A stretch of DNA of 64,000 nucleotides from Hyphococcus sp. Lineage in GTDB: Bacteria > Pseudomonadota > Alphaproteobacteria > Caulobacterales > Parvularculaceae. The position numbers and the translations under genes are program-made. The DNA lies in assembly GCA_021776335.1 (NCBI GenBank), contig JAJFGB010000008.1, forward strand, positions 1 to 64,000, given 5' to 3'. Below, piece after piece: positions 2,031-21,313 of this stretch (position 1 is the first letter of the stretch; each line of letters starts with the position of its first letter). The notes under the pieces are model-generated. The model saw only the letters and a program-made list of their open reading frames with translations. It did not search any database and had not been told where the DNA came from.

Positions 2031-4223
2031 TCAGGTCGCGCCGCGATCACTGGAGATAAACAGCGCAAACATCGAAAATGGCGGCAGTTCCATCCCTGCC
2101 TGTGCGGCGTCATTGCGAAAAGACGTCAATGCGTTTTCGTCGATACGCGTCCATGTCTCACCAGACGCCTCCCGCGCGCCTTCCATCAACTGAATAGCCA
2201 AGTTGGTCTCGCCGTTCTCATAGGCCATTCGTGCGCGCAGTCTGTTACTAATTGGACTAATCTGAGGCAGCAGGCGTTCGGCCTTGTTCAGCAGATCGAT
2301 GGCCTCTTCAGTTGATCCAAGCATCATTTTCGCGCGTGCCGCGCCAATAAGGGCGCCGGCCTGCCCAGGGCGGTAATGTAAAGCTCTGAATTTTCTCTCC
2401 GCCTGTTCAAATGCCGCCAGCGCATCACGGTTGCGATTTGTTTCCAAGAGTGCTGCGCCTAAATGTAATCGCGGCGCGGCGCTGTCGAAAACGATGCCCA
2501 GCGAGTCGTAGATTTCTATGGCGGCATCAAAGTCCTCAATGGCGAATTCGATTTCACGACGCTTTGCCGTTGTTTCTGTGTCTAATGCTATCGTCATGTG
2601 GGCGAGCCCGCGATAGAAGGTCGCGCGCGCTTCGTCTCGGCGAGCGCCCAAATTTTTGGCCGCAATTCGCACTTCCTCTACTGCGTTGAGCGCTTCTTGC
2701 CCGCTCATCTCTCGAATATACTGAGAGCTAAGTTCGAATTGAGTGTCGATAACGCCGATTCGGTTTCCGATGGATCGGTATACACGAAGTGACTCTAACA
2801 GTGCGGCTTTTCGTTCTCCCATGGAAAATGCCGGATTTGCGCCAAATGCCCGTTTGGCGGCAGCGAAGTTGCGTTGGTCTCCAAGTTGTTCAAACAAAAT
2901 CGCAGCTTGCTCAAGGCGTTCGCGATTCGATTGCTCAGTTATGATTGGATTTACGGTCGTAGCGATTGAAAGCAATGCCGCCGCGTGGCTAGGAAGCTCA
3001 CTTTGTACCGCGAGGAGGTTTGAGGCTGCGGACCTTGCAGCGAGGTAGTCTCCAGTATGCCCTTTGTCGGTGTAGACCAATGCAAGGCTATTCAAGATAC
3101 CGGCTTGGGCGACTATGTCGCCGTCCGCTTCATAATGTGATTTTGCATTTGTTAAGGCGCGTTCAGCATTGTGAACATCGCCCTTTCTGTGTGCGATGCG
3201 TCCGGAAATTTCAGCAGCAAAGCCATAGATGCGTTGACCCAGCCCAGGGACCTCTTCTCCAATAGCAGCAATGAGCATTTCCGCTTCAGGCCATGAACCC
3301 AATTCGTAGTGTGCTGCCGCCAGCACTACCATTGTTTCCTTATTTTCCGGATCAACAAGGAGGGACGCTTCAAGATAGCGTTTTGCGAGATCGCTGTTTC
3401 CTCGCCTGTAGGCGCTGAGGCCTCTGGAAAAATCAAACCCACCTCCATCAATGCTATTTCCGAGGGGCGCATCTCCGGTCGCAACGTCGGCTATGGCAAC
3501 AGCTAGTTCTGTGAGTGTTTTTGATACACCGGCAACAGTGCCCGTTGGACCTTCAAGCCTATAGGCGAACTGAGTGACGCCTTGCGCCTCTGTAAGTGTG
3601 GTTTCGAGCAGCCAAACAGATGACGCCGGGCGTTGGTCTGTATTTAGCTCTACCGCTTGAAAAACCTTCAGCAATAGCAATTCATCGACGAGATGGGTTG
3701 TCAGCCTGCCAGTCACCGCTTCAAATGCGTCAACATTCGTATTATTCAGGACCGGTAGCACTGCGATCGTTGGGGCAGGATTGCCTTCAAAAGAAAACTT
3801 CTCAATCCAGAAATACCCTAATGAGATGAAGGCCAACAGCGCTGTAGCAGCTATTGAGTAAGCAAATTTCTTTCGAACAGTGTTGGGCGAAAGATTCCTT
3901 GCCTCATCACTTAGTGTTGGTGTTGGGCCAATCCAGCGATATCCACGGCCATGCACGGTCTCAATATATCTTGGTTCGCTTGCGGAGTCATCTAAAGCGT
4001 GACGCAATTCACGCACACATTGCATAAGCGTATTATCGCCGACGATTCGATCATTCCAAATCTCGTCAAAAAGCTCGTCTTTGCTAACAATTTTGCCGGG
4101 CTGCTTTAACAAGAAAGACAAAAATGCCGCTGTCTTCGGCCGTATTCGAACTTTCACACCGTCGCGCAGGAGGTCGCCCGATTGGGCGTTGTAGGTAACC
4201 GGTCCGAGGCGTAAATTTGACAT
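2031..4223 (-). CDS. Membrane-anchored winged-helix transcriptional regulator with TPR region (CadC-like)
   Basis: 730 residues. Residues 1-100 form an OmpR/PhoB-type winged-helix DNA-binding domain (RPKTAAFLSFLLKQPGKIVS, recognition helix around 'NTLMQCVRELRHAL', wing 'YIETVHGRGYRW'). One transmembrane helix follows at about 120-141. The rest lies outside the cytoplasm: a small alpha/beta domain ('TIAVLPVLNN') like those in adenylate-cyclase-associated CadC relatives, then a long array of TPR-like helical pairs to the C-terminus. This one-component architecture senses something in the periplasm and binds DNA directly. It sits between the seven-gene lipid-type operon (upstream, same strand, 174 bp gap) and the secreted hydrolase, and could control either. 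No phosphoacceptor domain is present. Confidence 0.85.
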   Translation of the reverse strand: MSNLRLGPVTYNAQSGDLLRDGVKVRIRPKTAAFLSFLLKQPGKIVSKDELFDEIWNDRIVGDNTLMQCVRELRHALDDSASEPRYIETVHGRGYRWIGPTPTLSDEARNLSPNTVRKKFAYSIAATALLAFISLGYFWIEKFSFEGNPAPTIAVLPVLNNTNVDAFEAVTGRLTTHLVDELLLLKVFQAVELNTDQRPASSVWLLETTLTEAQGVTQFAYRLEGPTGTVAGVSKTLTELAVAIADVATGDAPLGNSIDGGGFDFSRGLSAYRRGNSDLAKRYLEASLLVDPENKETMVVLAAAHYELGSWPEAEMLIAAIGEEVPGLGQRIYGFAAEISGRIAHRKGDVHNAERALTNAKSHYEADGDIVAQAGILNSLALVYTDKGHTGDYLAARSAASNLLAVQSELPSHAAALLSIATTVNPIITEQSNRERLEQAAILFEQLGDQRNFAAAKRAFGANPAFSMGERKAALLESLRVYRSIGNRIGVIDTQFELSSQYIREMSGQEALNAVEEVRIAAKNLGARRDEARATFYRGLAHMTIALDTETTAKRREIEFAIEDFDAAIEIYDSLGIVFDSAAPRLHLGAALLETNRNRDALAAFEQAERKFRALHYRPGQAGALIGAARAKMMLGSTEEAIDLLNKAERLLPQISPISNRLRARMAYENGETNLAIQLMEGAREASGETWTRIDENALTSFRNDAAQAGMELPPFSMFALFISSDRGAT

Positions 4224-4397: not shown

Positions 4398-5849
4398 TCA
4401 GATGCCACGCCTTTTGCTCTTAGCAACTTCAGTTCGGTAAATTGCCTGTAGGCGCGGATAGTCAATCTTCGAGCGATGGCGTTTATCCAGGGGGATTTTT
4501 TTGACCTTCACCACATGCAGATCACCAATTTTGCTGGCGCGCTTTTGCCAGTCGCCGGGCTGTGGTTCGGCGCCCTGTATGATGAGGGCCGGTGGCGCGG
4601 AACCAGGCGTCAGCGCGACCTGTTCAACGCCAGGCCAAAAGCGGGCGGCAACTTCGATTTCAAAGGGGTAGCGCCCACCGGCTGCTGCGCCGAGGCGGCC
4701 ACGCAGCCATAGATTACCATCAACGTCGAGACTGCCGGCGTCGCCTGTGCGATGCCAGATTTCTCCGTCCAGCTTCACCTTGTTTGCGTCATCGCCGCGA
4801 CCATTGAGATAACCCTTATTGACGTGATCGCCAGTGACAACGATCTCCTCGTCAAGGAGAACTAATTTTATCTTGTGCATGGGCTTGCCGGCGAGCAACC
4901 CCTTGCCCGCCATCATGTCAGCCCATTGCGCTTCCGAAATTTCATCCATGCGTTGATGGGCGATGGGTTCTGCTTCGGTTGATCCATATACGGAGGTGAT
5001 TGTCGTTGCCGGCATCTTTTGGCCAAGGCGTTGCAACAGGTCGGGGAATACGGGGCCGCCGCCCGTGAAAATCGCATCAAGGGCGGGTTGAATGGGACCG
5101 GATGCGATGGTTTCACAAATAGAGGGCGGCGCCAGCATGCGGGTTATTCCATGTTGCGTTGTCAGCGTGGCGATACCCTTAGCTGTTGCGAGGTCGTGCC
5201 GTGTCAATTTCCAGTTTGGCAAGACAGAGGTTACACCCTGGCCCAGATTAGCGATCACAAAAACCGGGAACGCCACAAGGTCGCGCTCATCATCCCGCTG
5301 CGGCGCTAGTAACTCGCCGACGCAGGCATTTTGCGCCGCGAGAAATCCGTGGCTCCGGCACAGGCCTTTCGGCTTTCCGGTTGAACCGCTGGTAAAGGAA
5401 ATCAGGGCCGGATGACCGTTGGCGACATCTGTAAGCGGATCAGCACCGTCATCGGCGTTATCAGGCCAGTGAAGAGTTAAGGGGATGCGCCAGAAAGGCG
5501 GCAGCGCATAGCGAAGCAGGCGATAGGGGCCTGTCGCCAAAATCGCTTTTGGTTTGGTCATTGCTATGCCATGGGCAAGGCCGTTCAATCCCATCGCCGG
5601 TTCAGGAAATACAATCGTCGCGCCGATCCGCCAAAGGCCCGCGATCGCTCCGTACAGATTAATGTCGACAGACATCGCGAGAAGCACTCTGTCACCCGGA
5701 CCGATGCCGGCTTTGCGCCAACCTGCGGCCAACCGGGCAGAAAGATCGGCGAGCGCGCCAAATGTGATGGCTTCGCCTGCGCCTGTAATAATCGCCGTCT
5801 TTTCGGGATTTCGTTCTGCCGTTTCGAGAAATGAATGGATCAGGTTCAT
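4398..5849 (-). CDS. AMP-dependent acyl ligase, OleC-like
   Basis: 483-residue ANL-superfamily adenylating enzyme. Visible signs: the Gly/Ser/Thr-rich nucleotide loop SFTSGSTGKPKG at 151-162, the 'YGSTEAEP' adenine motif near 290, 'WHRTGDAG' near 370, and a C-terminal DKRHRSKID segment (455-463) that supplies the catalytic Lys. The 'YGSTEAEPI' form and the 'DKRH.SKI' ending resemble OleC, the beta-lactone synthetase of bacterial olefin synthesis, more than ordinary acyl-CoA synthetases, but OleA, OleB and OleD are not here. It starts 7 bp after the GNAT gene and is the last gene of the seven-gene operon. It probably activates a hydroxy or carboxylic acid made by the pathway; the acid is unknown. 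Confidence 0.8.
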   Translation of the reverse strand: MNLIHSFLETAERNPEKTAIITGAGEAITFGALADLSARLAAGWRKAGIGPGDRVLLAMSVDINLYGAIAGLWRIGATIVFPEPAMGLNGLAHGIAMTKPKAILATGPYRLLRYALPPFWRIPLTLHWPDNADDGADPLTDVANGHPALISFTSGSTGKPKGLCRSHGFLAAQNACVGELLAPQRDDERDLVAFPVFVIANLGQGVTSVLPNWKLTRHDLATAKGIATLTTQHGITRMLAPPSICETIASGPIQPALDAIFTGGGPVFPDLLQRLGQKMPATTITSVYGSTEAEPIAHQRMDEISEAQWADMMAGKGLLAGKPMHKIKLVLLDEEIVVTGDHVNKGYLNGRGDDANKVKLDGEIWHRTGDAGSLDVDGNLWLRGRLGAAAGGRYPFEIEVAARFWPGVEQVALTPGSAPPALIIQGAEPQPGDWQKRASKIGDLHVVKVKKIPLDKRHRSKIDYPRLQAIYRTEVAKSKRRGI

Positions 5850-5856
5850 GACTGGA

Positions 5857-6702
5857 TCAGAGCTTTCGACCCATCAAAGCATAGCGGCGGAATATATTTG
5901 CCGAATGCTGATCGCTTCGCGTGCGGGAAATATTGTCTTGATGCATCAGGGCGTGGATTACTGTTTCAAAGCCCATTTTCAGGGCAAGCCGGTGATAAGT
6001 ATCTGCCAAGAGACGCCCGACGCCGCGCTGTGCGCTTGCATAGGTTTTTAAAATAACGCTGGGGTTGCCCGACGCACACAAATGATCCGGGGTTGCAAAC
6101 AGAAAACCGACAATGGCGCCCTCATCGTCACGGGCGAACAAAACATGTTTGGGGTCGATAAAAGGCAGGAATGGCTCATATAACGCGAGGAACGCTTTCC
6201 GACTGATGGGCTTGTAGAAATTATTCTGACTAAAAGAACTTTTCGACATCGCAAAAAGTTGCTCGATAAGAACAGCAGTGTTCGTTCCGTCCCAGCATGA
6301 TACCGATATGCCGGTAACAGACACCGGCGCCGCCCCTAATGCGTCCTCAAGTTTACCGCGGGCGGAAACATAGTCAGATACTTTATGAAATCCAGCACGC
6401 ATGAATGCTGAAAGATCATGGGGGCTGCTTGTCGGCTCCATAAAAAAGGGCGGCGCGCCGTCGGTCTCGGTAACAAGCCGATAACTGTGCCATGTGTCGC
6501 CATTCATCGGGCCAAGCAGGCCATGAAATCCTTCTTGCTGCAAATCATCTGCGATTTCATTGAGAAGCGCAGCGCCTGCTTCTTCATCTGAAAAACGGAC
6601 ATCCCCGATTGCGGCACAACGCATCCCATCCCAGTCAGGCGCATCGCGGAAAATTGTCACGCTGCTATCGCCGCGTGCACAGGCCTCTGTGTTGGTACTC
6701 AC
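5857..6702 (-). CDS. GNAT-family N-acyltransferase
   Basis: 281 residues. The N-terminal half carries 'GFHGLLGPMNGDTWHSYRLV' (broken by me into a recognisable block at about 56-75) and 'PPFFMEP', typical of a two-lobed GNAT subgroup. The C-terminal half has the GNAT core: beta strand 'AIVGFLFATPD', then 'YASAQRGVGRLLAD', which matches the acyl-CoA pyrophosphate-binding R/Q-x-x-G-x-G/A loop (here QRGVGR). It ends 'FRRYALMGRKL'. It is translationally coupled to the kinase-like gene upstream by a GTGA overlap. In this operon a plausible role is acylation of an amino group, perhaps the one delivered by the DUF3419 enzyme; that is inference. Confidence 0.7.
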   Translation of the reverse strand: MSTNTEACARGDSSVTIFRDAPDWDGMRCAAIGDVRFSDEEAGAALLNEIADDLQQEGFHGLLGPMNGDTWHSYRLVTETDGAPPFFMEPTSSPHDLSAFMRAGFHKVSDYVSARGKLEDALGAAPVSVTGISVSCWDGTNTAVLIEQLFAMSKSSFSQNNFYKPISRKAFLALYEPFLPFIDPKHVLFARDDEGAIVGFLFATPDHLCASGNPSVILKTYASAQRGVGRLLADTYHRLALKMGFETVIHALMHQDNISRTRSDQHSANIFRRYALMGRKL

Positions 6703-8009
6703 GCGACTACACCCTTTAAAATAAATGCAACTGCCGGAACAGTGAACGCCAGAGCAAACACTTTGCCAACGCGGCGGCGGTCAAACCAGCCCGGCGCCAT
6801 CACAATAAACGACAGGATCAGTCCAAAGGACAATATTAGCGGCGGATATGCCGGATGCCACCAAGCCGCAAACTCCATATTGAGAGAGGCCGCCCAAAGG
6901 TAAATGGCGCCAGCGGCCATGGCGGGAATGATTACAGCAAAGCGGTATTTTCCTGGCAGCGCCAATCCCGCAAAAGCTATTGCAGCGCCTGCAAATGTCA
7001 GGTTGTAAAGGTCGATGGCTATAAGACCTGAGAGTTCACCTGTGGCCAGCCAGAACAATGCAGTGAATGCGGCGGCGGCAAGTAACTCAAGGTCCGGGTG
7101 TTGGCTCTCAGAGGGGCGTATGCGGCGGGCGATCATGTGAGCGATAATCGCCAGGCAGGGTAGAAGGTGATTGCGCGGTTCCGCCGTCACCATGAACATC
7201 ACAAATAACAAGACAGAATAAGCCTGAGCCGTGTGCCGGTCATATTTCAGCATCGGCATGAGTGCAATCATGGTCGATATGACAACAACAAAGAGTATCG
7301 CGGCATACAGGAGGTCGAGCGGCGGCGAACCGATATGCGTAGCGAGAAAAAAATGAATCGCGACGGGCACAAAGAGATTGTCGAGCCCTTTCCACGACAC
7401 CGCCTCTACAAGTGCGCCAAATGCGGCAATCATGAAACCTAGAATAACTACATTCGACCTTGCGGTGTCGGTCATCAGCAACAGAACGATCATGGCGATT
7501 AGCCAGGTTATCAAAAAGAATGCGGCAACGCCTTCTGCGCTTTTGGCGCCATCTTCGACTGCGAACATTCGGCGCCCATAGTTTGTGCCGATCATCGCAG
7601 ACGCGGTATCGGAAAGCGCAATGACCAACATCGGCAAAACATATAGTACGGGCTCGCCTTGCGAACGAAAGAACACAAATGCTGTTGCGATGGAGAGGCA
7701 GATTTCCCCATAAGACTTGCGGCTCACGGAGTGCAAGACGGAACTCATCTTCGAGCGCGCAAACGCTGGCGTCCGTAAAGCCGTCATCACCACAATTGAG
7801 AGCGCCGAAAGAATGAGTACAGGACCAGCATTTGAAAATAACCAGGGAAAGGTCAGCGCTGTCAGGCCGGTTGCTACGTGAACACTCTTGCGTTGAAGCT
7901 CTGCCGATAACCCCCATCGTGGCGCGACAACGCGGACGCCGACCATCAGCCCCAATAACGCCGCCACGATTGCAGCGATCCATGCGGCATCCAGGATTGT
8001 TATGCTCAC
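6699..8009 (-). CDS. Phytol/dolichol kinase-like integral membrane protein
   Basis: 436 residues with about 11-13 predicted membrane helices. The first half matches the CTP-dependent polyprenol kinase/cytidylyltransferase family (SEC59, VTE5, FOLK): LQRKSVH at 38-44, SDTASAMIG (Asp134) and GAKSAEG (155-160) correspond to the conserved RK-x-x-H, D-x-x-A/G and K-S-x-E-G motifs that bind the nucleotide. Such enzymes phosphorylate phytol, farnesol or dolichol. The second half (about 240-436) adds several more helices not present in the short plant-type kinases, and I do not recognise it. It starts with GTG overlapping the DUF3419 stop by four bases. A lipid alcohol is the likely substrate in view of the adjoining UbiA gene. 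Confidence 0.75.
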   Translation of the reverse strand: MSITILDAAWIAAIVAALLGLMVGVRVVAPRWGLSAELQRKSVHVATGLTALTFPWLFSNAGPVLILSALSIVVMTALRTPAFARSKMSSVLHSVSRKSYGEICLSIATAFVFFRSQGEPVLYVLPMLVIALSDTASAMIGTNYGRRMFAVEDGAKSAEGVAAFFLITWLIAMIVLLLMTDTARSNVVILGFMIAAFGALVEAVSWKGLDNLFVPVAIHFFLATHIGSPPLDLLYAAILFVVVISTMIALMPMLKYDRHTAQAYSVLLFVMFMVTAEPRNHLLPCLAIIAHMIARRIRPSESQHPDLELLAAAAFTALFWLATGELSGLIAIDLYNLTFAGAAIAFAGLALPGKYRFAVIIPAMAAGAIYLWAASLNMEFAAWWHPAYPPLILSFGLILSFIVMAPGWFDRRRVGKVFALAFTVPAVAFILKGVVA

Positions 8010-9103
8010 AGCACTTCTTCCACGATGAAATCGGAGTAGAAAAAGGCCTTATCCATTGATTTGCCGCGTGCTTCTATATCCGTCAGTGTCCGGATACCCT
8101 TTGACCAGCGCTCGGGGACACGGCGCGGCGCCATCATATTCCAGTAAACGAGCCGGCACCCTGGATTGGCCGCTTTAAGAAGGGAGCCATAGACGGTCTC
8201 GAAGGTTGCGGCGTCCATATATTCGAAAATGTCGGAGAGATTGTATCCATCAGCGCGCTCACCGGTCTCGACGAACTGCTCCAGCGCGCCGCAGCGTAAA
8301 TCGAGCCTGTCCAGGCGTTGCCGGATTGTGTCGTAATGTTCCTCGCGCCATGCAAGAGGCAGGGCGACGCCGTGGCATCCTTTCAAAATCCAGTGGAGAT
8401 ACGGATTCTCCGATGGGTCGAGATCAATTGCTGCGTGAATGAGGCGCCGTGAAACATGTTCGGCGAGACTGCCTTCAACATAAGCAAAAAAGGAGGGGTC
8501 GCGCCCCAGCCTGCCCATAACGAAATTTGAAAAGAAAAAACCGAGGAGCAGTCGCCAACGCCAGTTGTTCCACCGTTCGTCGAAGAATGTCTGACGGTCC
8601 GCCTGTGGGCGCGCATTGAACACATCATCAAGGGTTTTACGGTTATGGGCCAGTGGCAATAACCAGGTGCGAAAAGTCCGGAAATATGTCTCGAACTTGC
8701 CGATGCCGCCAATGCCATATTGCGCTACGGATTCGCGGCGACTGGCCCAAAAAGCCTGATCCGCATCCTCCAACACCGACGCCGCGCGGGCCAGCAATTC
8801 GCCCCGTCGTGATGAGGGTCGTGATCCGGTCAATTCCAAAAACTCAACATGAGATAGTTTCCGGTAAGCCTCGATCCGCAGACGCAAACAAGAAATCTGT
8901 GCGGGCGACAAATCTAACGCCACCACCCGGTCGGGATCTAACAGGAGCATCGCCAGCGCATTGTCTCCACCGGAACAAATAGAGACAAATGTCGCGCCGG
9001 GCTTTGAGGGAAGGGCGTCGACCAGGACATCGGCATCCTCCCACAATTGCGCGTAGCGGATCAGCTCAAATTGCGCCTTTCCGGCGATTTGGGCGTCAGC
9101 CAT
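8006..9103 (-). CDS. DUF3419 family protein, BtaA-like 3-amino-3-carboxypropyl transferase
   Basis: 365 residues. The start 'YAQLWED' (17-23) and the SAM-binding strand-loop SICSGGDNAL (41-50), followed by 'VVALDLSPAQ', are signatures of the DUF3419 family. The characterised member, BtaA, moves the 3-amino-3-carboxypropyl group of S-adenosylmethionine to the hydroxyl of diacylglycerol, giving the homoserine head group of betaine lipids. The length suits a stand-alone BtaA. The N-methylating partner BtaB is absent from the window, so the product may stay a primary amine. Its ATG overlaps the end of the dikinase gene by eight bases (ATGGCTGA). The acceptor in this operon is unknown and could be a prenyl alcohol or other lipid. 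Confidence 0.8.
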   Translation of the reverse strand: MADAQIAGKAQFELIRYAQLWEDADVLVDALPSKPGATFVSICSGGDNALAMLLLDPDRVVALDLSPAQISCLRLRIEAYRKLSHVEFLELTGSRPSSRRGELLARAASVLEDADQAFWASRRESVAQYGIGGIGKFETYFRTFRTWLLPLAHNRKTLDDVFNARPQADRQTFFDERWNNWRWRLLLGFFFSNFVMGRLGRDPSFFAYVEGSLAEHVSRRLIHAAIDLDPSENPYLHWILKGCHGVALPLAWREEHYDTIRQRLDRLDLRCGALEQFVETGERADGYNLSDIFEYMDAATFETVYGSLLKAANPGCRLVYWNMMAPRRVPERWSKGIRTLTDIEARGKSMDKAFFYSDFIVEEVL

Positions 9104-11573
9104 CTGTTTTTCTCACTTTGCCCGTTGCGCCATCAACCTCGATTGTTTCGCCATCGACAATCCATTTCATCGCGCTTTTAAGACCAACTACGCAAGGAAT
9201 ACCCAGTTCGCGTGCAACGATCGCCGAATGCGACAGCAAACTGCCACGCTCAACCACGATCGCCGAGGCATTTGAAAATACTGCAATCCAGCCCGGATCG
9301 GTGTGACGCGCGACCAGTATTTCACCGGGCTTGATGCCTTGCGTGCGCGGATCGCTTATCAGCCTGGCGGCACTCTTTACGCAACCGGCGCTGCACCCCG
9401 TACCGCTACGCTCGCGCTCGTTGTTATCCGCCGGCGTTTCTTGCGGTGTTGCCGTGTGGAGACCGGAAATGGCCGCGCCCTTTACAATAATCCGTTCTTC
9501 GGGGTCCGGACGCGCCACAGATGCGGTTGTTTCAGCCTTTCTCAATGCGACAATCCCGGACAAGCCGTTGCTAACAGCAAAACCTTCGATGGCGCCGAGA
9601 ACCTCCTGAACGGTCAGGTAGAAAATATCGTCGGGGTCATCGAGCAAACCATGGGCGTGAAACTGGCGTCCGACCGCGCGAAATAGATGTCGCGCTCGCC
9701 CAAAAATTCGTGTCCGTTCAAACCGAAGGTTTTCGCGATCGCGGACCCGTCGCCGGGCCCAGCCAACAAGCAAACGCGCTAACCATCGCTTGACGGGTTT
9801 TGTCGCGAAGAGTGCGCCAAGGCTGTCGGTATTTTTTTGTTCATCCGCGGCATGTGTGTTCTGTGCGGCGGGAATTTTTCTTGTCGCCGAAGCGATCGCC
9901 ATATAAAGCGGCGCGGGATCACGTTCAAGCGGAATGCTTTCGAGTTTGAGCTCCTCTGTGCACCGGTCGCCAAATTTTTCTATATAAGCCGCAACCGCTT
10001 TTTCAAGCTCCGGCGAGCGGGCAATCAAATCGCCATCGCCGCGTTCGAGGGTTGCTGTTAGTTCTGCGTCCTGTCCGGCCATTGCGCCCATAGCGCGAAT
10101 TCGCTTTGCCGGTTCAGCGGAAATGATATCGCCTTGACCGATCATAATATCGTTGTGCGCGGCAAGCCCTTCATCGCCAGCCCATTTTTCGAGCAATTTT
10201 CGCGACGCGCCAAAAGCTATCATACACAAAAAGTCGTTGACCAGCGGTGCGTCCCAACGATCAAGCAGGTCCGCTTCTATACGTCTGTACTCTGCAGCAA
10301 GAGAGGTTAGCGGCATCGTATCAAGCTCTGTAGCGGGTTGGGCCAGTGCAAGATTAAGCCGCTTGTAGAAATCCCCCACGGTCAAGCGCAACCGCAGCGC
10401 TTCAAAGCCCAGCTTCAATCCAACGCCTGCAATTTTTAGCCATTCAACGGCGAGGGCGACCCCCTTTGGCGGTTCGCCGGCGATATCATCTGCAATTTCC
10501 TGCGGAAGTGCAGAGCTGACACCCATCATCGTTTCCATATAGGCGCGGTTCAGCGAAAAACCTGGCAACAGCGCCAGCGCGCGGTACCAATTGATCAGAT
10601 TATAATAAACGCGCCCATCAAGGCGTGCGAGCATATTGTCGAAGACATCCGCATGCGCCCTTATTGAAGCATCGCTCACGCCGACGAGACTGACAAAGCG
10701 GCGATAGACCCGGGAATAGGCATATTGGGCGAAGCTGTAGGTAAGAGGCGATACAATGCCGGGATAACTCTCAATGATATTAGAGTTGTCAAAGACAATC
10801 ACGCCGTCGTCACTTAAAGGCGAAGGTCTCAGCGCAGTGGTAATTGGCCGGGTTTGCAACAGAAAGAGTTTGGAGCCTTCAAAGGCCCACTCAATGTCCT
10901 GTGGGGCGCCGCAAAAATCTGCAACCTTGGCAATCAACTGATGCAAGGCTGCAATATCTTCCGACGACAGCACGCCTGTGTCTGGCCCGCGCAGGCGTGC
11001 GCCGCTTGCCCGACCGAGTATGTATGTCTCACCGTCTTCTTCTCCGCCAACAAGCCGGTCGCCAAGGCCGCTGATTGCCGAGATCACGAAGCGATCCTGC
11101 AATCCACTGACGGGGTCGGCGCTGAACGCAACGCCAGCACATCGTGCGTCGATCATTTGTTGCACAATGACCGCAGGCGCGCTGCTGTCGCCATCAATGC
11201 CGCGACTTTCGCGATAAGAATTGACGGCAGCGTTCGCGCCTGAGCGCCAAACCTGCAAACAGGCGTCCGGAATATCTTTCGCGCTGACGTTAAGCACGGA
11301 GAGAAACTGACCGGCATGAGAATTTGCTGCGCCATCTTCTTCAATGGCCGATGACCGTGCCGCGTATGGACCGGGCCCAAGCTGTTCGAGCGATGCTATC
11401 AGTTCAGCATGCGCGGTCGCTTGTAAGCCGTCATTTGAAAAAGCGGCTGTGCTTAAAACAAAGAAGGGCGGAACATCAAAGCCGTGTTCGGCGGACCTTG
11501 CGAGCGCGGCGCCTTTGCCGCCGAGTTGATCGACCCCCGCCTTGTCGCGGAGCTTAAAGATGAGCTGCGTCAC
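9096..11573 (-). CDS. PEP/pyruvate-binding dikinase-like protein, rifampicin phosphotransferase architecture
   Basis: 825 residues from a GTG that shares its G with the UbiA stop codon (TAGTG). Residues 1-300 form the PPDK-type ATP-grasp domain ('LGGKGAALARSAEHGF' at the N-terminus, 'AARSSAIEEDGAANSHAGQ', 'DIEWAFEGSKLFLLQTRPI'). A helical middle region about 310-700 follows. The end is a swivelling phosphohistidine domain with GSLLSHSAIVAREL (His782) and 'GIPCVVG'. It stops there: the PEP/pyruvate TIM barrel of true PEP synthase is missing. This is the layout of rifampicin phosphotransferase and related ATP-dependent dikinases, which phosphorylate a hydroxyl with release of AMP and phosphate. 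The operon suggests a lipid or isoprenoid alcohol as acceptor, not pyruvate. Confidence 0.8.
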   Translation of the reverse strand: MTQLIFKLRDKAGVDQLGGKGAALARSAEHGFDVPPFFVLSTAAFSNDGLQATAHAELIASLEQLGPGPYAARSSAIEEDGAANSHAGQFLSVLNVSAKDIPDACLQVWRSGANAAVNSYRESRGIDGDSSAPAVIVQQMIDARCAGVAFSADPVSGLQDRFVISAISGLGDRLVGGEEDGETYILGRASGARLRGPDTGVLSSEDIAALHQLIAKVADFCGAPQDIEWAFEGSKLFLLQTRPITTALRPSPLSDDGVIVFDNSNIIESYPGIVSPLTYSFAQYAYSRVYRRFVSLVGVSDASIRAHADVFDNMLARLDGRVYYNLINWYRALALLPGFSLNRAYMETMMGVSSALPQEIADDIAGEPPKGVALAVEWLKIAGVGLKLGFEALRLRLTVGDFYKRLNLALAQPATELDTMPLTSLAAEYRRIEADLLDRWDAPLVNDFLCMIAFGASRKLLEKWAGDEGLAAHNDIMIGQGDIISAEPAKRIRAMGAMAGQDAELTATLERGDGDLIARSPELEKAVAAYIEKFGDRCTEELKLESIPLERDPAPLYMAIASATRKIPAAQNTHAADEQKNTDSLGALFATKPVKRWLARLLVGWARRRVRDRENLRFERTRIFGRARHLFRAVGRQFHAHGLLDDPDDIFYLTVQEVLGAIEGFAVSNGLSGIVALRKAETTASVARPDPEERIIVKGAAISGLHTATPQETPADNNERERSGTGCSAGCVKSAARLISDPRTQGIKPGEILVARHTDPGWIAVFSNASAIVVERGSLLSHSAIVARELGIPCVVGLKSAMKWIVDGETIEVDGATGKVRKTDG

Positions 11574-12526
11574 TATGTTGAGCCTCGCGAAATAAGGGGC
11601 GCAAACCCCGCAAGGCTGTAACATGCGAGCACCCAAAGACCGGCAAATGTGTCAATACGCTTTTGCGCTTTCGGCGTTGGCGATTGTCGGTAAGACCAGG
11701 CGGCCCATAACGCGGCGCCAAGCGGCGCCAGCCCGGCCAGCGCGATGATACCAGCTGCGCCAACGGCAACGCCAACGCCGCACAACAATCCATAGGCGAC
11801 GAAGATGATGGTTGCCCAAGCTTCTGCTCCGCGTGCGGGGCCGAGCAGTCCGGAATATGTTTCAACGCCATTACGTTCATTTTCCGGCGCCCACAGTTTT
11901 CGTCCGATTTCCAGAACGCAACCGTTTACAAAGCTCAAAAAGAGAAACAACCAGAGACCAGGAGGCGGGTGTGCGCCATGAGGCAACCATTCTGAGGCGG
12001 TGATGAAAAGGTCGATCAGCGGCATGATCGCCATATGTGAGACGAGATATGCCAATGGACGCGCCTTGATCCATTTCGGTACAAAGAATTCCATCGTCAT
12101 CAAGCCCAGCCACACCCAAACCAACAGGAGCGGCAACACGAGCGCCGTTGACAGAACCGATACGGCGGAAAGTGCGATGATGCCGCCGATAATCCCAATG
12201 CTGATTATCAAGCGTAAGCTGACCAGGCCGCTTGGGATGGGGCGCTCGGGCCGATAGAGGCGGTCGTCATCCAGGTCTTTATACTCGTCACATGCGCGCA
12301 TCTGGAAGAAAATGACCAGGGTCGCGAACCAGGCGACAAAAAACGTCATTACGCCGGGTAACGAACGGTCGCCGAGATGGGCGGAGACAGAGATGCTGGC
12401 GGCGGAAAAAACGCCGAGCAGTAATGTTGTCTTGAAAATAGGGAAACGATCCGCCTGATAGATCCACAATTTCTTCCAAAGCGGCTGGTCGGCTGCCGGA
12501 TGGCGCGGCAATGCGTTTGTCGACAT
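11573..12526 (-). CDS. UbiA-family prenyltransferase
   Basis: 317 residues from an ATG overlapping the HMG-CoA reductase stop (TAATG); an upstream in-frame start would run 81 bases into that gene and is unlikely. Seven to nine membrane helices. The first Asp-rich motif is 'RACDEYKDLDDD' (77-88), followed by 'YRPERPIPSG', and the second is the charged loop 'APENERNGVETYSG' (213-226). Both bind Mg2+-diphosphate of the prenyl donor. The second loop lacks the usual DxxxD, with Glu residues instead, which marks a subgroup apart from UbiA and MenA. The enzyme should attach a polyprenyl chain to a membrane-bound acceptor. It lies between HMG-CoA reductase and the dikinase in the operon. Confidence 0.85.
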   Translation of the reverse strand: MSTNALPRHPAADQPLWKKLWIYQADRFPIFKTTLLLGVFSAASISVSAHLGDRSLPGVMTFFVAWFATLVIFFQMRACDEYKDLDDDRLYRPERPIPSGLVSLRLIISIGIIGGIIALSAVSVLSTALVLPLLLVWVWLGLMTMEFFVPKWIKARPLAYLVSHMAIMPLIDLFITASEWLPHGAHPPPGLWLFLFLSFVNGCVLEIGRKLWAPENERNGVETYSGLLGPARGAEAWATIIFVAYGLLCGVGVAVGAAGIIALAGLAPLGAALWAAWSYRQSPTPKAQKRIDTFAGLWVLACYSLAGFAPLISRGST

Positions 12527-13806
12527 TACCGATCTCGCGCTAATTTTTTGTGGGCGCGCGTAAAGCGCCCAGATGCGATAGCGCCGATGATCGAAACTTC
12601 GCCGCATAAACAGATCGCCGCAGCTACTTCGGCAAGCGCAGCCGCTTTGTTTTCTCCCTTCAATCCCATGATGCGCAATCCAGCAGATTGACCAGGGAGG
12701 CTTGTGCCGCCACCCACCGTACCAACCAATATGTTGGGCAGCGTGACTGAAAAGAATAGGCCGTCATCGCGGCGTTCCATGCGCGTAAAGCCGACCGCAG
12801 ATTCCGACACGCAGGCGGCGTCTTGACCCGTTGCGATATAAAGTGCGGCCAGCGCGTTCGAGTAATGCGCCTGTGCGCCGAGTTGACCGGAAAGAATAGC
12901 GCCGAGATTGGCAATTCTTCCATAGGCCAGCATTTTTTCCGGCTCAACGTGTAATCTACGGGCGATGAGTTCATTTGGAATAGTGACGCTTGCGGTTACC
13001 CGGCGACCACGCCCTGTAAGCAGGCCAAGATAGGAAGCCTTTTTGTCGCCGGAAAAATTTGCCTCAATAAACCAGTGTAATGGTTTTACCGGGCAGCTTT
13101 CTTCTATGGCGGCGCAGATGGCTTCGGTTGCGACGGTCACCATATTTTGACCCGAGGCGTCACCGGTGGTGTATCGGCACATCAAGAATACCGTATCGCT
13201 GTCCAATACAGGTTCTATTGAAATCAGTTTGCCGTAACGGGTGGTCGCTTCGGAAGCGGTCTTCAGGGCCGCGCTGTTTTCCGCAATCCAGTTGATAAAA
13301 AGACCGGCCTCATGAATGCCGGCGAAGATAAAGGCGGGTGTGCGCAGCAACCCTTCCGACACCATTGCCGCGCTGATGCCGCCTGATTTGCTGCATACAT
13401 CGGCGCCCCGACCATATGAGGCGACGAGGGCTGCTTCTGTAGTCGCAAGCGGTACAAAAAAATCACCATTGGCGTGAACGCCATTCACCCGCATCGGGCC
13501 AACAACGCCAACGGGAACCCTCACGGCGCCAATCAGGTTCTCGATATTTTTGCTGTAGATTTCTGGTTTCAGGCTACCCGCAGATCCCGTTAGCTCGGCT
13601 TCGTCCTCAGCGGTTGCGTCTGATGTTTCGCGCAACCGCTGCCAGATTCGCGCTATCGAATCGGCGCTTGCTTTGTGGCGTGGGCGAATTTGTGTACTTG
13701 CTTCACCGAGGCCGCCAGTTCTTAGTCGTTCGCCGAGATCGACTTGCCCCGACTTTGTCCGCAACAATTTGAGCATGCGCAGGACGTTCGATGGCACGAT
13801 TTGCAT
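12526..13806 (-). CDS. Hydroxymethylglutaryl-CoA reductase, class I-like
   Basis: 426 residues; ATG preceded by GGGGA, preferred over a GTG four codons upstream. All key residues are visible: ENLIGAVRVPVGVVGP (89-104) for substrate binding, Glu124 in ATTE, the DASGQNM cofactor loop (216-222), Lys255/256 in GDKKAS, Asp329 in GQDAA, GTVGGGT (362-368) and His419 near the C-terminus. Together they form the Glu-Lys-Asp-His set of class I reductases. The N-terminal membrane anchor of eukaryotic forms is absent. The enzyme reduces HMG-CoA to mevalonate with NAD(P)H. No mevalonate kinase, decarboxylase or HMG-CoA synthase gene is in the window. It is the first gene of a seven-gene operon and sets its theme as isoprenoid or branched-chain lipid synthesis. 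Confidence 0.92.
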   Translation of the reverse strand: MQIVPSNVLRMLKLLRTKSGQVDLGERLRTGGLGEASTQIRPRHKASADSIARIWQRLRETSDATAEDEAELTGSAGSLKPEIYSKNIENLIGAVRVPVGVVGPMRVNGVHANGDFFVPLATTEAALVASYGRGADVCSKSGGISAAMVSEGLLRTPAFIFAGIHEAGLFINWIAENSAALKTASEATTRYGKLISIEPVLDSDTVFLMCRYTTGDASGQNMVTVATEAICAAIEESCPVKPLHWFIEANFSGDKKASYLGLLTGRGRRVTASVTIPNELIARRLHVEPEKMLAYGRIANLGAILSGQLGAQAHYSNALAALYIATGQDAACVSESAVGFTRMERRDDGLFFSVTLPNILVGTVGGGTSLPGQSAGLRIMGLKGENKAAALAEVAAAICLCGEVSIIGAIASGRFTRAHKKLARDR

Positions 13807-14139: not shown

Positions 14140-14610
14140 CTATTTTAAAACAGCGCGGTAGGAAACTTCGCGGGTTTCGTTGGCAGGCATTGCTGCGACG
14201 AGTGACCATTTGATATGAGTGATCTCATTGCTTTTTGCCGGGCGATCCTCACCGTCCTCCGAGACCGTCAACCGGCCGCGGGCCACATAGGTCTGCCCGC
14301 CATCAGCAGAAAAAGTAATTTTGGCAGTTTGGCCGCCGACTGAGCCCTCTACGTAACTCACCTCAGATGGCACGGGCATTACCAGGATGACGGCTTCTGC
14401 TGGTGCATCACCATCATTTGAGAACCGAAGCGAATAAATTACTTCCTCACCAGGGGTAACTTTTTCAGCCTTTATCCGTTCAGTAGTTTCATTGCCGTTG
14501 TTGTCACGCGTGACGATTTCTTTTTCGACAATTTGCTCTGCCACAATTGCAGCAAACACTGGTGTGGCGCTGGCGCTGAAACACAGCGAAATCAGGAGAA
14601 GTCGGAGCAT
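14140..14610 (-). CDS. Small secreted DUF11-like protein
   Basis: 156 residues with a clear signal peptide (MLRLLLISLCFSASATPVFA). The mature part is a single DUF11-type beta-sandwich: 'KVTPGEEVIYSLRFSNDGDAPAEAVILVMPVP' in pieces at about 50-80, and a final 'ETREVSYRAVLK'. DUF11 domains are Ig-like modules repeated in bacterial surface proteins. A strong RBS (GAGGGGA) precedes the ATG. It is divergent from two plus-strand genes that encode larger secreted proteins with the same fold, which makes a three-gene surface module likely. No catalytic residues are evident. Confidence 0.75.
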   Translation of the reverse strand: MLRLLLISLCFSASATPVFAAIVAEQIVEKEIVTRDNNGNETTERIKAEKVTPGEEVIYSLRFSNDGDAPAEAVILVMPVPSEVSYVEGSVGGQTAKITFSADGGQTYVARGRLTVSEDGEDRPAKSNEITHIKWSLVAAMPANETREVSYRAVLK

Positions 14611-14882
14611 TGATTTATCCCCTCAAGGCTAATGCTGATTATCAATTATAGCATTTCTGGTAAACATCCTGTTAACGATGCTCGCTCGAAATTTGCAACC
14701 GGAAGTGCGTAACGCGTTCATTTTGCTGCCTATGGTGGTTTTTTAATTTAAAAGTAAGGTTAATAATCAGTATGCATCTTATAATAAGGCGTATAAAAAC
14801 TATTGCCAATCGATAAAATTTTGGGGTTTGTTTACGTAAGCATGCCATTTTGATCCCCTCTATAGGTGTAGGGGAAGTACAC
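14611..14882. promoter_or_regulatory. Divergent promoter region between DUF11 genes
   Basis: AT-rich 272-base region between the leftward small DUF11 gene and the rightward 374-residue secreted protein. Its centre, 14735-14800, is markedly richer in A/T than the surroundings, with 'tttttaatttaaaagtaagg' in its core, and must carry both promoters. No operator is identified with confidence. Confidence 0.5.
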
Positions 14883-16007
14883 ATGATTACAAAAGCAAAC
14901 CGCTTACGCTTGGCGGTTATTGCGACGAGTGCGGTGTTTGCCGGTCTCGTTTCAAGCGTAGCACATGCTGCCGGCACCAGCGCCGGTACATCTGTGTCAA
15001 ACACATTTACGCTGGATTACGACATCTCCTCGGTTGCGCAAACCCAAATCACACCGGGTGCGCCAACGACTTTCACTGTTGATAGGAATGTTGATCTCAC
15101 CGTGACCAGTCAGGGCAATGTCAATGTTGCGCCGGCTGCGACTGGAGAGGAACTGGTCTTTGGCGTTCGCAATGACGGCAATGACAACCAAGCCTATTCG
15201 TTTGCGCTTGAAGATCTTGGCGGCGATAATTTCGACGCCACGTCTGTTGCACTCCGCTACTATGTGGATGCGGGCGCTGATGGCATCTTTACAGCAGGTG
15301 TCGACGATGCTGGCGCCGGTACGGCTTACACTGCCGGTTCGGGGGCTGCTTCGACGGACCTCGCGCCAGATGCAACGCTCTGGATTGTCCTTTCGGGCGA
15401 TATTCCGGGGGCGGCCACCGACGGGCAAGCTGACGGCCATATCCTTCTTGCCGATACGCTCAATCCAGTAGCTTCACTGGATGCGGCCTATTCGGCGACG
15501 GCGGGTACTCAAGCCACGGCCGCAGCGGGCGCTAACAATCTCAATGGAGAGGCGCAAAACGTCCTTGCAGACGGTACCGGCACCGCGGCGGCTGACGCAG
15601 CCAATGACGGGGCACATTCTGCGACAGCAAGCTTTGTTGTCGTTACGGCAAGCCTGTCAGCGTCGAAAACTGTTTCTGTTATCGCCACAGACGCGAGTGC
15701 GATTACTTGTGCGACAGATGCGGCGCTCGCTGGCAATCAATATGCGGTCCCTGGGGCGTGTATTGAGTATGTCATATCAGTGACCAACGCTGTGGGCGCT
15801 TCGGCGACAGCAACTGATATCGCTGTCTCTGACACATTGCCCGATGAGGTCGCTTTTGTCGGCGTCACGCAGTCGAGCTTTACGGTGGCAGGCACACTGA
15901 CATCACCGGGCGGCGGCTGCACGACGTCCTGTGTTGTGTCGCTCTCGACCGCAAGTCTTGCGCCGAATACGACAGGAACGGTGACTATCCGAGCGACCGT
16001 CAGATAA
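14883..16007 (+). CDS. Secreted DUF11-domain protein
   Basis: 374 residues from the ATG that follows GGGGAA; the longer frame adds 11 residues without a better start. Signal peptide to about residue 30 (FAGLVSSVAHA/AGTSAG). The body is low-complexity, rich in Ala, Thr, Gly and Asp, with beta-sandwich repeats. The last ~110 residues are a recognisable DUF11 domain: 'ASKTVSVIA', 'PGACIEYVISVTN', 'ATDIAVSDTLPDEVAFVGV', and the closing 'LAPNTTGTVTIRATVR'. Two Cys pairs (about 268/287 and 348/352) may form disulphides. It is followed by a strong hairpin and then the 1687-residue gene, so the two are probably co-transcribed. It may be an exported adhesin-like or matrix component; the role is unproven. 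Confidence 0.75.
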   Translation: MITKANRLRLAVIATSAVFAGLVSSVAHAAGTSAGTSVSNTFTLDYDISSVAQTQITPGAPTTFTVDRNVDLTVTSQGNVNVAPAATGEELVFGVRNDGNDNQAYSFALEDLGGDNFDATSVALRYYVDAGADGIFTAGVDDAGAGTAYTAGSGAASTDLAPDATLWIVLSGDIPGAATDGQADGHILLADTLNPVASLDAAYSATAGTQATAAAGANNLNGEAQNVLADGTGTAAADAANDGAHSATASFVVVTASLSASKTVSVIATDASAITCATDAALAGNQYAVPGACIEYVISVTNAVGASATATDIAVSDTLPDEVAFVGVTQSSFTVAGTLTSPGGGCTTSCVVSLSTASLAPNTTGTVTIRATVR

Positions 16008-16036
16008 CGGCCGTTCTGCTTTCCTGACGCCTTTGG

Positions 16037-16067
16037 GCCGCCGTGCTGATGAAATCAGCACGGCGGC
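16037..16067 (+). terminator. Strong hairpin between two DUF11 genes (attenuator or partial terminator)
   Basis: Fourteen-base perfect inverted repeat (gccgccgtgctgat / atcagcacggcggc) with a three-base loop, 30 bases after the stop of the 374-residue gene. It is followed by gcttccacac, with no U-tract, so it may protect the upstream mRNA or only weaken readthrough into the large gene. Confidence 0.65.
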
Positions 16068-16118
16068 GCTTCCACACTAAAGAGGCGTCTTTGTAAGAGC
16101 TCAGAAGGGCTCAGTTGC

Positions 16119-21182: not shown

Positions 21183-21313
21183 GCCCGGCCCTGGAGGCAT
21201 TGCTGGGATACTGGCTGAGCATCGGCTGAATGTTGCGGCCCTCAAAATAATTGATGAGAAAATAGCGCGATGAACGCTTTGAAAGTCAGCCCTTGTTGAC
21301 GTAAACCATCCCG

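What the first reader, a model, noticed from the sequence alone, without database searches (positions are those of the whole stretch)
4398..13806. Seven-gene translationally coupled operon combining HMG-CoA reductase, UbiA, an RPH-like dikinase, DUF3419, a phytol-kinase-like protein, GNAT and an OleC-like ligase
Six consecutive gene junctions overlap or nearly touch (TAATG, TAGTG, ATGGCTGA, two GTGA overlaps, then 7 bp), so the genes are made together. The set does not match any pathway I know: it has a mevalonate-forming enzyme, a prenyl transferase, two different alcohol-phosphorylating enzymes, an aminocarboxypropyl transferase, an acyltransferase and an adenylating enzyme. A coherent reading is assembly of a new membrane lipid: a prenylated or polyol core is phosphorylated, receives a homoserine-like head group, is acylated on its amine, and a carboxylic acid is activated. 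The order of steps is speculation; the co-occurrence is fact.
Basis: partly seen in the sequence, partly recalled or inferred. Interest (0 to 1): 0.9.

Follow-up and report, generated by a model that had tools for sequence, protein, structure and literature searches.

The report
Conserved seven-gene orphan-mevalonate operon
Many marine and soil alphaproteobacteria, and some Halomonas, carry the same tightly packed set of seven genes, which looks like the recipe for an undescribed prenylated, amino-acid-bearing molecule whose mevalonate part is made by bacteria that do not otherwise seem to use mevalonate.

Summary
The operon is real and is a system. All seven genes and six junctions are as described. 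A genome scan with a three-sequence DUF3419 profile found 330 relatives and kept 80 loci: 73 have the same seven genes in the same order and strand, and the other 7 are cut by contig ends. In the family of a Ruegeria genome, 17 of 295 genomes have it. Control loci with other DUF3419 (28) or other HMG-CoA reductase genes (7) show none of the partners.

New fact: each of 16 operon-bearing genomes tested has one HMG-CoA reductase, the operon's. HMG-CoA synthase is absent (0 of 16), no mevalonate kinase passes its cut-off (0 of 16), and 14 of 16 carry the MEP enzyme DXR. Mevalonate is therefore probably a building block, not an isoprenoid precursor.

Best reading: an RPH-like kinase and UbiA make a phosphorylated prenyl core, the DUF3419 enzyme adds an aminocarboxypropyl group, and mevalonate is activated by the ligase and passed to the amine by a tandem GNAT. 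The chemistry is inferred. The kinase-UbiA pair recurs beside an AfsA-like gene in Streptomyces clavuligerus, so a hormone-like small lipid is a live alternative. Ten full-text searches showed no description of it.

The parts
12526..13806 (-). HMG-CoA reductase, class I-like, 426 aa; the only HMGR found in the genome
   Evidence: PF00368 E 7.6e-107; one match in the whole genome; catalytic E124, K255/K256, D329, H419 invariant in 72 of 72 aligned rows, aligned to human 1dq8 and archaeal 6hr7
11573..12526 (-). UbiA-family prenyltransferase, 317 aa; altered second acidic motif
   Evidence: PF01040 E 7e-14; nearest solved relative DGGGP synthase 6m31 over the first half; D80, E81, D84, D88, E206, R209, E217 in 75 of 75 rows
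9096..11573 (-). RPH-like dikinase (ATP-grasp, own middle domain, C-terminal phosphohistidine domain), 825 aa with GTG start; residue numbers in this report count from its fourth residue
   Evidence: PPDK_N and PEP-utilizers; RPH 5fbs E 2.9e-88 with unaligned middle domain; RPH catalytic residues conserved
8006..9103 (-). DUF3419 protein, BtaA-like, expected aminocarboxypropyl transferase, 365 aa
   Evidence: PF11899 E 3e-55; separate from 26 other DUF3419 proteins of the class in a tree with 23 operon rows
6699..8009 (-). polytopic membrane protein, 436 aa, with a phytol/dolichol-kinase-like motif in its N-terminal half (recalled, unconfirmed)
   Evidence: D134, G141, K156, E159, G160, E202, D210, N211 invariant in 72 of 72 rows; model pLDDT 87.1, nearly all helical; no family or PDB match that names it
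5857..6702 (-). tandem-GNAT acyltransferase, 281 aa
   Evidence: AlphaFold2 model pLDDT 89.3; Foldseek hits to tandem GNATs, e.g. 5kf1 E 1.9e-12, 7q3a TM 0.64, mycothiol synthase; weak Acetyltransf_1, E 0.038
4398..5849 (-). adenylate-forming acyl ligase, 483 aa
   Evidence: PF00501 E 5e-39; K161, E292, D370 and C-terminal K461 in 78 of 78 rows

Best explanation
A dedicated, horizontally moving biosynthetic operon for one prenylated, aminocarboxypropyl-bearing lipid-like metabolite in which mevalonate is a structural part. Proposed working: HMGR turns HMG-CoA into mevalonate. The RPH-like kinase (with the membrane protein as a possible second, lipid-alcohol kinase) phosphorylates the alcohol that UbiA uses as donor or acceptor, giving a prenyl core. 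The DUF3419 enzyme moves the 3-amino-3-carboxypropyl group of SAM onto that core. The ligase activates mevalonate (or a derivative) and the tandem GNAT puts it on the new amine, as SidI and SidF do with (anhydro)mevalonate in fungal siderophores. Shown: the operon, its conservation, the orphan status of HMGR in 16 genomes, conserved catalytic residues. Inferred: every substrate, the order of steps, the product and its use. The confidence is for a dedicated pathway with mevalonate as a pendant part; the N-acyl position alone is about 0.3.
For: Same order in 73 of 80 kept loci, 7 cut by contig ends. Gene families co-vary, pairwise distance r 0.83-0.93 over 65 rows, though shared host ancestry alone also gives correlation. 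No partner at 28 of 28 other DUF3419 loci (about 1.5 kb or less each side) and 7 of 7 other HMGR loci (19-20 kb). HMGS 0 of 16, mevalonate kinase over cut-off 0 of 16, DXR 14 of 16, HMGR one each in 16 of 16. HMG-CoA lyase, a sign that HMG-CoA is handled, 13 of 16 over cut-off. Catalytic residues invariant in HMGR (72 of 72) and ligase (78 of 78); kinase K17, R70, R610, E611 in 77 of 77 and H779 in 75 of 77. GNAT fold. G241 keeps kinase, DUF3419, UbiA and GNAT and has PF02666 next to them, a hint that these four are the core and that the amine-bearing side chain can be processed in another way. Precedent for mevalonate to acyl-CoA-ligase-family enzyme to transacylase: PMC3709128 (abstract and passages).
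Against: Three of 16 genomes have no HMG-CoA lyase over cut-off, so their HMG-CoA source is unclear. The HMGR scores below the NCBIfam equivalog cut-off (312.5 against 441.8 bits), so its substrate may differ. The second UbiA metal motif is not canonical (form recalled). No hydratase like SidH is among the seven genes. The membrane protein's kinase role rests on a recalled motif. Nothing shows that the ligase uses mevalonate rather than a fatty acid; its best NCBIfam model is a fatty-acid CoA ligase family, below that model's cut-off (223.8 against 478). Two of 77 kinase rows lack the phosphohistidine (one R, one gap).
Confidence: 0.5

Rival explanations
1. Mevalonate is the core, not the acyl group: UbiA joins a prenyl chain to a (phospho)mevalonate hydroxyl, as DGGGP synthase does with a glycerol phosphate ether; the DUF3419 enzyme adds the head group and ligase plus GNAT attach a fatty acid. 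An ether lipid with mevalonate in place of glycerol.
For: The only solved relative of the UbiA profile below E 0.008 is DGGGP synthase (E 3.7e-7). Orphan HMGR. The ligase's best NCBIfam model is a fatty-acid CoA ligase family, below its cut-off.
Against: The alignment to DGGGP synthase covers only the first half and the first acidic motif. G241 has kinase, DUF3419 and UbiA without HMGR on its 14.9-kb contig; the rest of that genome was not searched for HMGR.
Confidence: 0.2
2. The product is a diffusible hormone-like small molecule rather than a bulk membrane lipid; the kinase-UbiA pair is a module shared with AfsA-type clusters of actinomycetes. This concerns the use of the product and does not exclude the best reading.
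For: Streptomyces clavuligerus megaplasmid: AfsA-like, ICMT-like and kinase genes and a gene annotated 'hypothetical' that matches the UbiA profile, in a row, the last two overlapping by 4 nt. That kinase matches the operon's kinase profile through the middle domain (E 2.5e-130 in a 5-sequence search), its UbiA at 4.8e-15. S. durmitorensis has AfsA, ICMT, nitroreductase, kinase, P450. P450 genes lie in the fetched stretch of 23 of 81 loci and a sulfotransferase in 16 of 81. Patchy spread, 17 of 295 in one family.
Against: No regulator or receptor gene stood out among the 45 flanking-ORF clusters printed. The S. durmitorensis stretch of 17 kb has no match to the UbiA profile. Kinases of this superfamily serve many pathways, among them clusters of prodigiosin type.
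Confidence: 0.3
3. HMGR simply boosts isoprenoid supply: an unrecognised mevalonate route, with the operon's kinases doing the phosphorylations, feeds prenyl diphosphate to UbiA.
For: HMGR and UbiA are adjacent; the operon has one or two kinase candidates.
Against: HMG-CoA synthase in 0 of 16 and mevalonate kinase over cut-off in 0 of 16 genomes, no decarboxylase among the seven genes, and DXR in 14 of 16. A 2026 review leaves open, for Streptomyces, whether a lone HmgR beside the MEP pathway contributes to isoprenoids (PMC13001223, passages).
Confidence: 0.08
4. A variant of betaine-lipid (DGTS) synthesis: DUF3419 acts as BtaA on diacylglycerol and the other genes decorate the head group.
For: PF11899 match; BtaA-type enzymes are recalled to move the aminocarboxypropyl group to diacylglycerol.
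Against: 23 operon DUF3419 rows group together (support 95; with G241, 99) apart from 26 other DUF3419 of the class, in a quick tree with long branches and six short rows; prenyl and mevalonate enzymes have no known role in DGTS (recalled).
Confidence: 0.05

Closest known systems
Fungal mevalonyl-CoA ligase / anhydromevalonyl transacylase pair (SidI, SidF; PMC3709128)
   Same: Mevalonate diverted from isoprenoid use, activated by an acyl-CoA-ligase-family enzyme and passed to an amine by a transacylase
   Different: Bacterial; no SidH-like hydratase among the seven genes; coupled to UbiA, RPH-like kinase and DUF3419; homology to SidI and SidF was not tested
Rifampin phosphotransferase (RPH; PMC4844700, PDB 5fbs)
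   Same: ATP-grasp plus C-terminal phosphohistidine swivel domain; equivalents of Lys22, Arg117, Arg666, Glu667, His825 conserved; Thr136 is Ser or Thr
   Different: Middle drug-binding domain does not align; gene context is biosynthetic
BtaA, DUF3419 (DGTS betaine-lipid synthesis)
   Same: Family PF11899, expected SAM-dependent aminocarboxypropyl transfer (recalled)
   Different: 24-36% identical to the other class members found besides G241, separate group in the tree, different neighbours
DGGGP synthase (UbiA family, PDB 6m31)
   Same: First acidic motif and RP..P.G signature; best solved match
   Different: Second half does not align; second motif E..RK...P..E..GV.TYS
Mevalonate pathway
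   Same: HMGR with conserved catalytic residues
   Different: No HMG-CoA synthase and no mevalonate kinase over cut-off in 16 genomes tested
AfsA-type cluster of Streptomyces clavuligerus (L159)
   Same: Kinase-UbiA pair, the kinase homologous through its middle domain
   Different: AfsA-like and ICMT-like genes in place of HMGR, DUF3419, GNAT, ligase

Membership tests
Mevalonate pathway for isoprenoids | HMG-CoA reductase with catalytic Glu, Lys, Asp, His | tested here: met
   72 of 72 rows; which residues are catalytic is recalled
Mevalonate pathway for isoprenoids | HMG-CoA synthase and mevalonate kinase in the genome | tested here: not met
   PF08540 0 of 16; TIGR00549 0 of 16 over cut-off, 2 of 16 weak
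Rifampin phosphotransferase-type dikinase | ATP-grasp and C-terminal phosphohistidine domains with Lys22, Arg117, Arg666, Glu667, His825 equivalents | tested here: met
   K17, R70, R610, E611 77 of 77; H779 75 of 77; residue pairing counted by hand from the printed alignment
Rifampin phosphotransferase-type dikinase | Rifampin-binding middle domain; RPH curated cut-off | tested here: not met
   Profile positions 247-507 unaligned; NF041857 202.9 against 999 bits
PEP synthase | Curated PEP synthase cut-off | tested here: not met
   TIGR01418 181.1 against 739.75 bits
BtaA betaine-lipid enzyme | DUF3419 domain | tested here: met
   PF11899 188.4 bits, cut-off 28.2
BtaA betaine-lipid enzyme | Diacylglycerol as acceptor | not testable with these tools
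   Needs an assay
UbiA prenyltransferases | UbiA domain over cut-off | tested here: met
   PF01040 52.2 bits, cut-off 34.2; the G241 member is below it, 26.3
UbiA prenyltransferases | Two canonical Asp-rich motifs | tested here: inconclusive
   First motif DExKDxxxD in 75 of 75; second motif replaced by E..RK...P..E; canonical form recalled
OleC beta-lactone synthetase | Curated OleC cut-offs | tested here: not met
   NF045785 97.5 against 850; NF045786 88.1 against 900
Adenylate-forming ligases | P-loop and C-terminal catalytic Lys | tested here: met
   PF00501; K161 and K461 78 of 78
Phytol/dolichol kinase | Match to a kinase family or fold | tested here: inconclusive
   No such family among the hits of 24 members in Pfam and NCBIfam; no PDB fold match; no similarity to the CTP_transf_1 protein of the genome; the motif is recalled only
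GNAT acyltransferases | GNAT fold | tested here: met
   217 PDB matches at E <= 0.001; the 50 listed are mostly GNATs, many of them tandem
Fungal mevalonyl module SidI/SidF | Mevalonate as ligase and transacylase substrate | not testable with these tools
   Needs assays; sequence homology not tested

The most novel reading that the evidence does not exclude
A new class of bacterial lipid or lipid hormone in which mevalonate, made by an orphan reductase in MEP-pathway bacteria, is a structural building block joined to a prenylated aminocarboxypropyl (homoserine-ether) core, assembled by a kinase-UbiA module that an actinomycete uses in an AfsA-type cluster.
Probability: 0.4. Interest if true: 0.9.

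Novelty: categorically new. Interest (0 to 1): 0.8.

Why it matters
Mevalonate is taught as an isoprenoid precursor; here bacteria that make isoprenoids by another route keep one mevalonate-forming enzyme inside a fixed seven-gene operon. If the product contains mevalonate, that is a new kind of natural product or membrane lipid in marine genera such as Ruegeria, Roseovarius, Yoonia and Sulfitobacter. It would also give functions to a membrane protein and a tandem GNAT that Pfam and NCBIfam do not name, and a reason for orphan HMGR genes. Cultured hosts (for example Roseovarius nubinhibens ISM, Ruegeria halocynthiae) make it directly testable.

Tried and rejected
Rejected: chance neighbourhood; canonical mevalonate pathway; OleC or PEP-synthase membership; sulfotransferase and P450 as core members (16 and 23 of 81 loci; not in the window). 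Led nowhere: literature searches for the gene set; viral contigs; a search of 398 genomes of the phylum with the UbiA profile found only the window's own; order of G241 (2 genomes); the membrane protein against the CTP_transf_1 protein; the promoter/terminator scan was uninformative. Partial or dropped: the genome scan found 330 relatives but kept 80, so 250 were not examined; rows with incomplete genes were left out of alignments (71 to 81 of 81 loci kept per family); the 28 control DUF3419 loci are those with DNA among 32 matches other than the window and G241; the DUF3419 tree used 23 operon rows of my choice, lost 2 of 28 control rows and has 6 short rows; the 16 genomes for pathway tests were chosen by me among operon holders. 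In one search three G241 stretches were given in the wrong frame or limits and found nothing; two were corrected, the third (13697-14845 of L042) was not scanned again.


Full report
Observation. The junctions are TAATG, TAGTG, ATGGCTGA, GTGA, GTGA and a 7-bp gap, read from the printed sequence. Pfam names five of the seven; the membrane protein and the GNAT have no Pfam match at E <= 0.001.

Conservation. A tblastn search of plasmids with the DUF3419 protein found 12 records, one of them close: 59.7% identical, on a Roseinatronobacter sp. S2 plasmid, where UbiA, kinase, DUF3419, membrane protein, GNAT and ligase genes follow in the same order. The HMGR gene is there too, across the start of the circular record. 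A scan of genome contigs with a three-sequence profile found 330 relatives and kept 80. Seventy of these 80 give one clean hit per gene in the order HMGR-UbiA-kinase-DUF3419-membrane protein-GNAT-ligase, three more show the same order with one or more genes split in two hits, and the other seven are cut by contig ends. In the 64 loci that pass a length filter for all seven genes, all 384 junctions have an in-frame start within -20 to +16 nt of the previous stop and 341 overlap, with the nearest start chosen. In a separate sampling of the family of a Ruegeria genome, 17 of 295 genomes have the DUF3419 clade at E <= 1e-60. Of these 17, three are loci already held and 14 were fetched: 12 have the full order and two are cut by contig ends; seven of the 14 repeat loci of the first scan.

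Controls. At 28 other DUF3419 loci of the class, read about 1.5 kb or less to each side, and at seven other HMGR loci read over 19-20 kb, no partner gene is found at E <= 0.001. Pairwise distances of the seven families correlate at 0.83-0.93 over 65 rows; common descent of the hosts gives correlation as well, so this is support, not proof. In the concatenated tree (FastTree) two Halomonas loci sit beside Chelativorans inside the Hyphomicrobiales rows with full support, and Yoonia species fall in separate branches. The window's own relatives seem to lack the operon: 7 of 59 other genomes have an HMGR at E <= 1e-20, all only 36-40% identical and without partners in the stretches read. Together with the plasmid copy this points to horizontal movement (inference).

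Orphan reductase. Sixteen operon-bearing genomes, chosen by me, were tested whole. HMG-CoA synthase: 0 of 16. Mevalonate kinase: 0 of 16 over the cut-off, 2 of 16 weak. DXR of the MEP pathway: 14 of 16. HMGR: exactly one in each of 16, the operon's, since all 15 loci behind the other genomes hold the full operon. HMG-CoA lyase: 13 of 16 over the cut-off. So the reductase is not part of a recognisable mevalonate pathway. Its four catalytic residues are invariant in 72 of 72 rows, but it scores below the NCBIfam equivalog cut-off (312.5 against 441.8 bits). The likely HMG-CoA source is leucine breakdown (established knowledge, not tested), unclear for the three genomes without lyase.

Kinase. 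The best solved relative is rifampin phosphotransferase (5fbs, E 2.9e-88); the ATP-grasp and swivel domains align and the middle does not. The residues that the RPH paper tests or discusses (Lys22, Arg117, Arg666, Glu667, His825; PMC4844700, passages) pair with K17, R70, R610, E611 (77 of 77) and H779 (75 of 77; one R, one gap); Thr136 pairs with Thr or Ser. Numbers count from the fourth residue of the 825-aa protein. An RPH-like phosphotransfer to an unknown acceptor is thus well supported. A relative of RPH phosphorylates hydroxyphenylethanones (PMC12167813, abstract).

A related pair in Streptomyces. S. clavuligerus megaplasmids carry AfsA-like, ICMT-like and kinase genes and a 'hypothetical' gene that matches the UbiA profile, in a row, the last two overlapping by 4 nt. 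This kinase aligns with the operon's kinase profile through the middle domain (E 2.5e-130 in a search of five sequences) and the UbiA at 4.8e-15. S. durmitorensis has AfsA, ICMT, nitroreductase, kinase and P450 genes but no match to the UbiA profile in the 17 kb read. More distant kinases of the plasmid collection lie in clusters of prodigiosin type, one of them with a gene annotated PigD, so the superfamily is broad.

A reduced relative. Genome G241 has kinase, DUF3419 (46% identical), UbiA, GNAT and a phosphatidylserine-decarboxylase-family gene (PF02666, E 1.6e-47) in a row, without a match to HMGR, membrane protein or ligase on the 14.9-kb contig. It is one genome. Reading: the four shared genes are the core; the amino acid-type side chain added by DUF3419 is decarboxylated in G241 and acylated in the seven-gene form (inference).

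Other parts. The GNAT model (pLDDT 89.3) matches tandem GNATs. The membrane protein (pLDDT 87.1) has no match in Pfam or NCBIfam that names it and none in the PDB at E <= 0.001; its invariant D, K-S-x-E-G and E...DN...P residues resemble phytol and dolichol kinases as I recall them. P450 genes lie within the fetched stretch of 23 of 81 loci and a sulfotransferase in 16 of 81, each of the 16 together with a P450; the window has neither. An ABC-transporter ATPase cluster appears in 24 of 81 loci on both strands and was not pursued.

Mechanism. I propose that the kinase and UbiA make a phosphorylated prenyl core, DUF3419 adds the aminocarboxypropyl group, and mevalonate is activated by the ligase and joined to the amine by the GNAT. 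The precedent is fungal: SidI makes mevalonyl-CoA and SidF transfers the anhydromevalonyl group (PMC3709128, abstract and passages). My estimates: one dedicated pathway 0.97; mevalonate as building block 0.7; N-acyl position 0.3. Rivals are given separately.

Literature. Ten full-text searches of open-access papers gave no description of this gene set in the listings; only four papers hold the word DUF3419 (listing). Most subscription papers are outside the library, so the claim of novelty is limited to that.

Noticed in passing
L003-L009, L043-L049 (e.g. L045 9423-10664): A second, unrelated HMGR (36-40% identical) in 7 of 59 relatives of the window's genome, without the operon's partners; in L045 its neighbours look like SpoVR-type genes (recalled).
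   Followed up: partly
L159 5529-10906: Streptomyces clavuligerus megaplasmid: AfsA-like, ICMT-like, kinase, UbiA-like genes in tight order; perhaps a prenylated relative of butyrolactone hormones.
   Followed up: partly
L161, L162, L163: Clusters of prodigiosin type on plasmids of Methylocystis, Thioclava and Pseudoalteromonas; in Thioclava beside an acyl-homoserine-lactone synthase gene.
   Followed up: no
L064 2678-5165, L071 2978-5361 and 14 similar loci: Sulfotransferase-P450 gene pair near the operon in 16 of 81 loci, a likely tailoring cassette.
   Followed up: partly
window 2031-4223: Regulator with OmpR-type DNA-binding domain fused to TPRs just downstream of the operon, same strand.
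   Followed up: no
window 14140-24142: Run of secreted-looking proteins beside the operon, some very large; read by eye from the ORF list, no family search done.
   Followed up: no
genomes G790 and G796 (Devosia nitrariae, Taklimakanibacter): No PF02670 DXR match; perhaps the alternative enzyme DXR type II, subject of PMC3847144 (search listing only).
   Followed up: no
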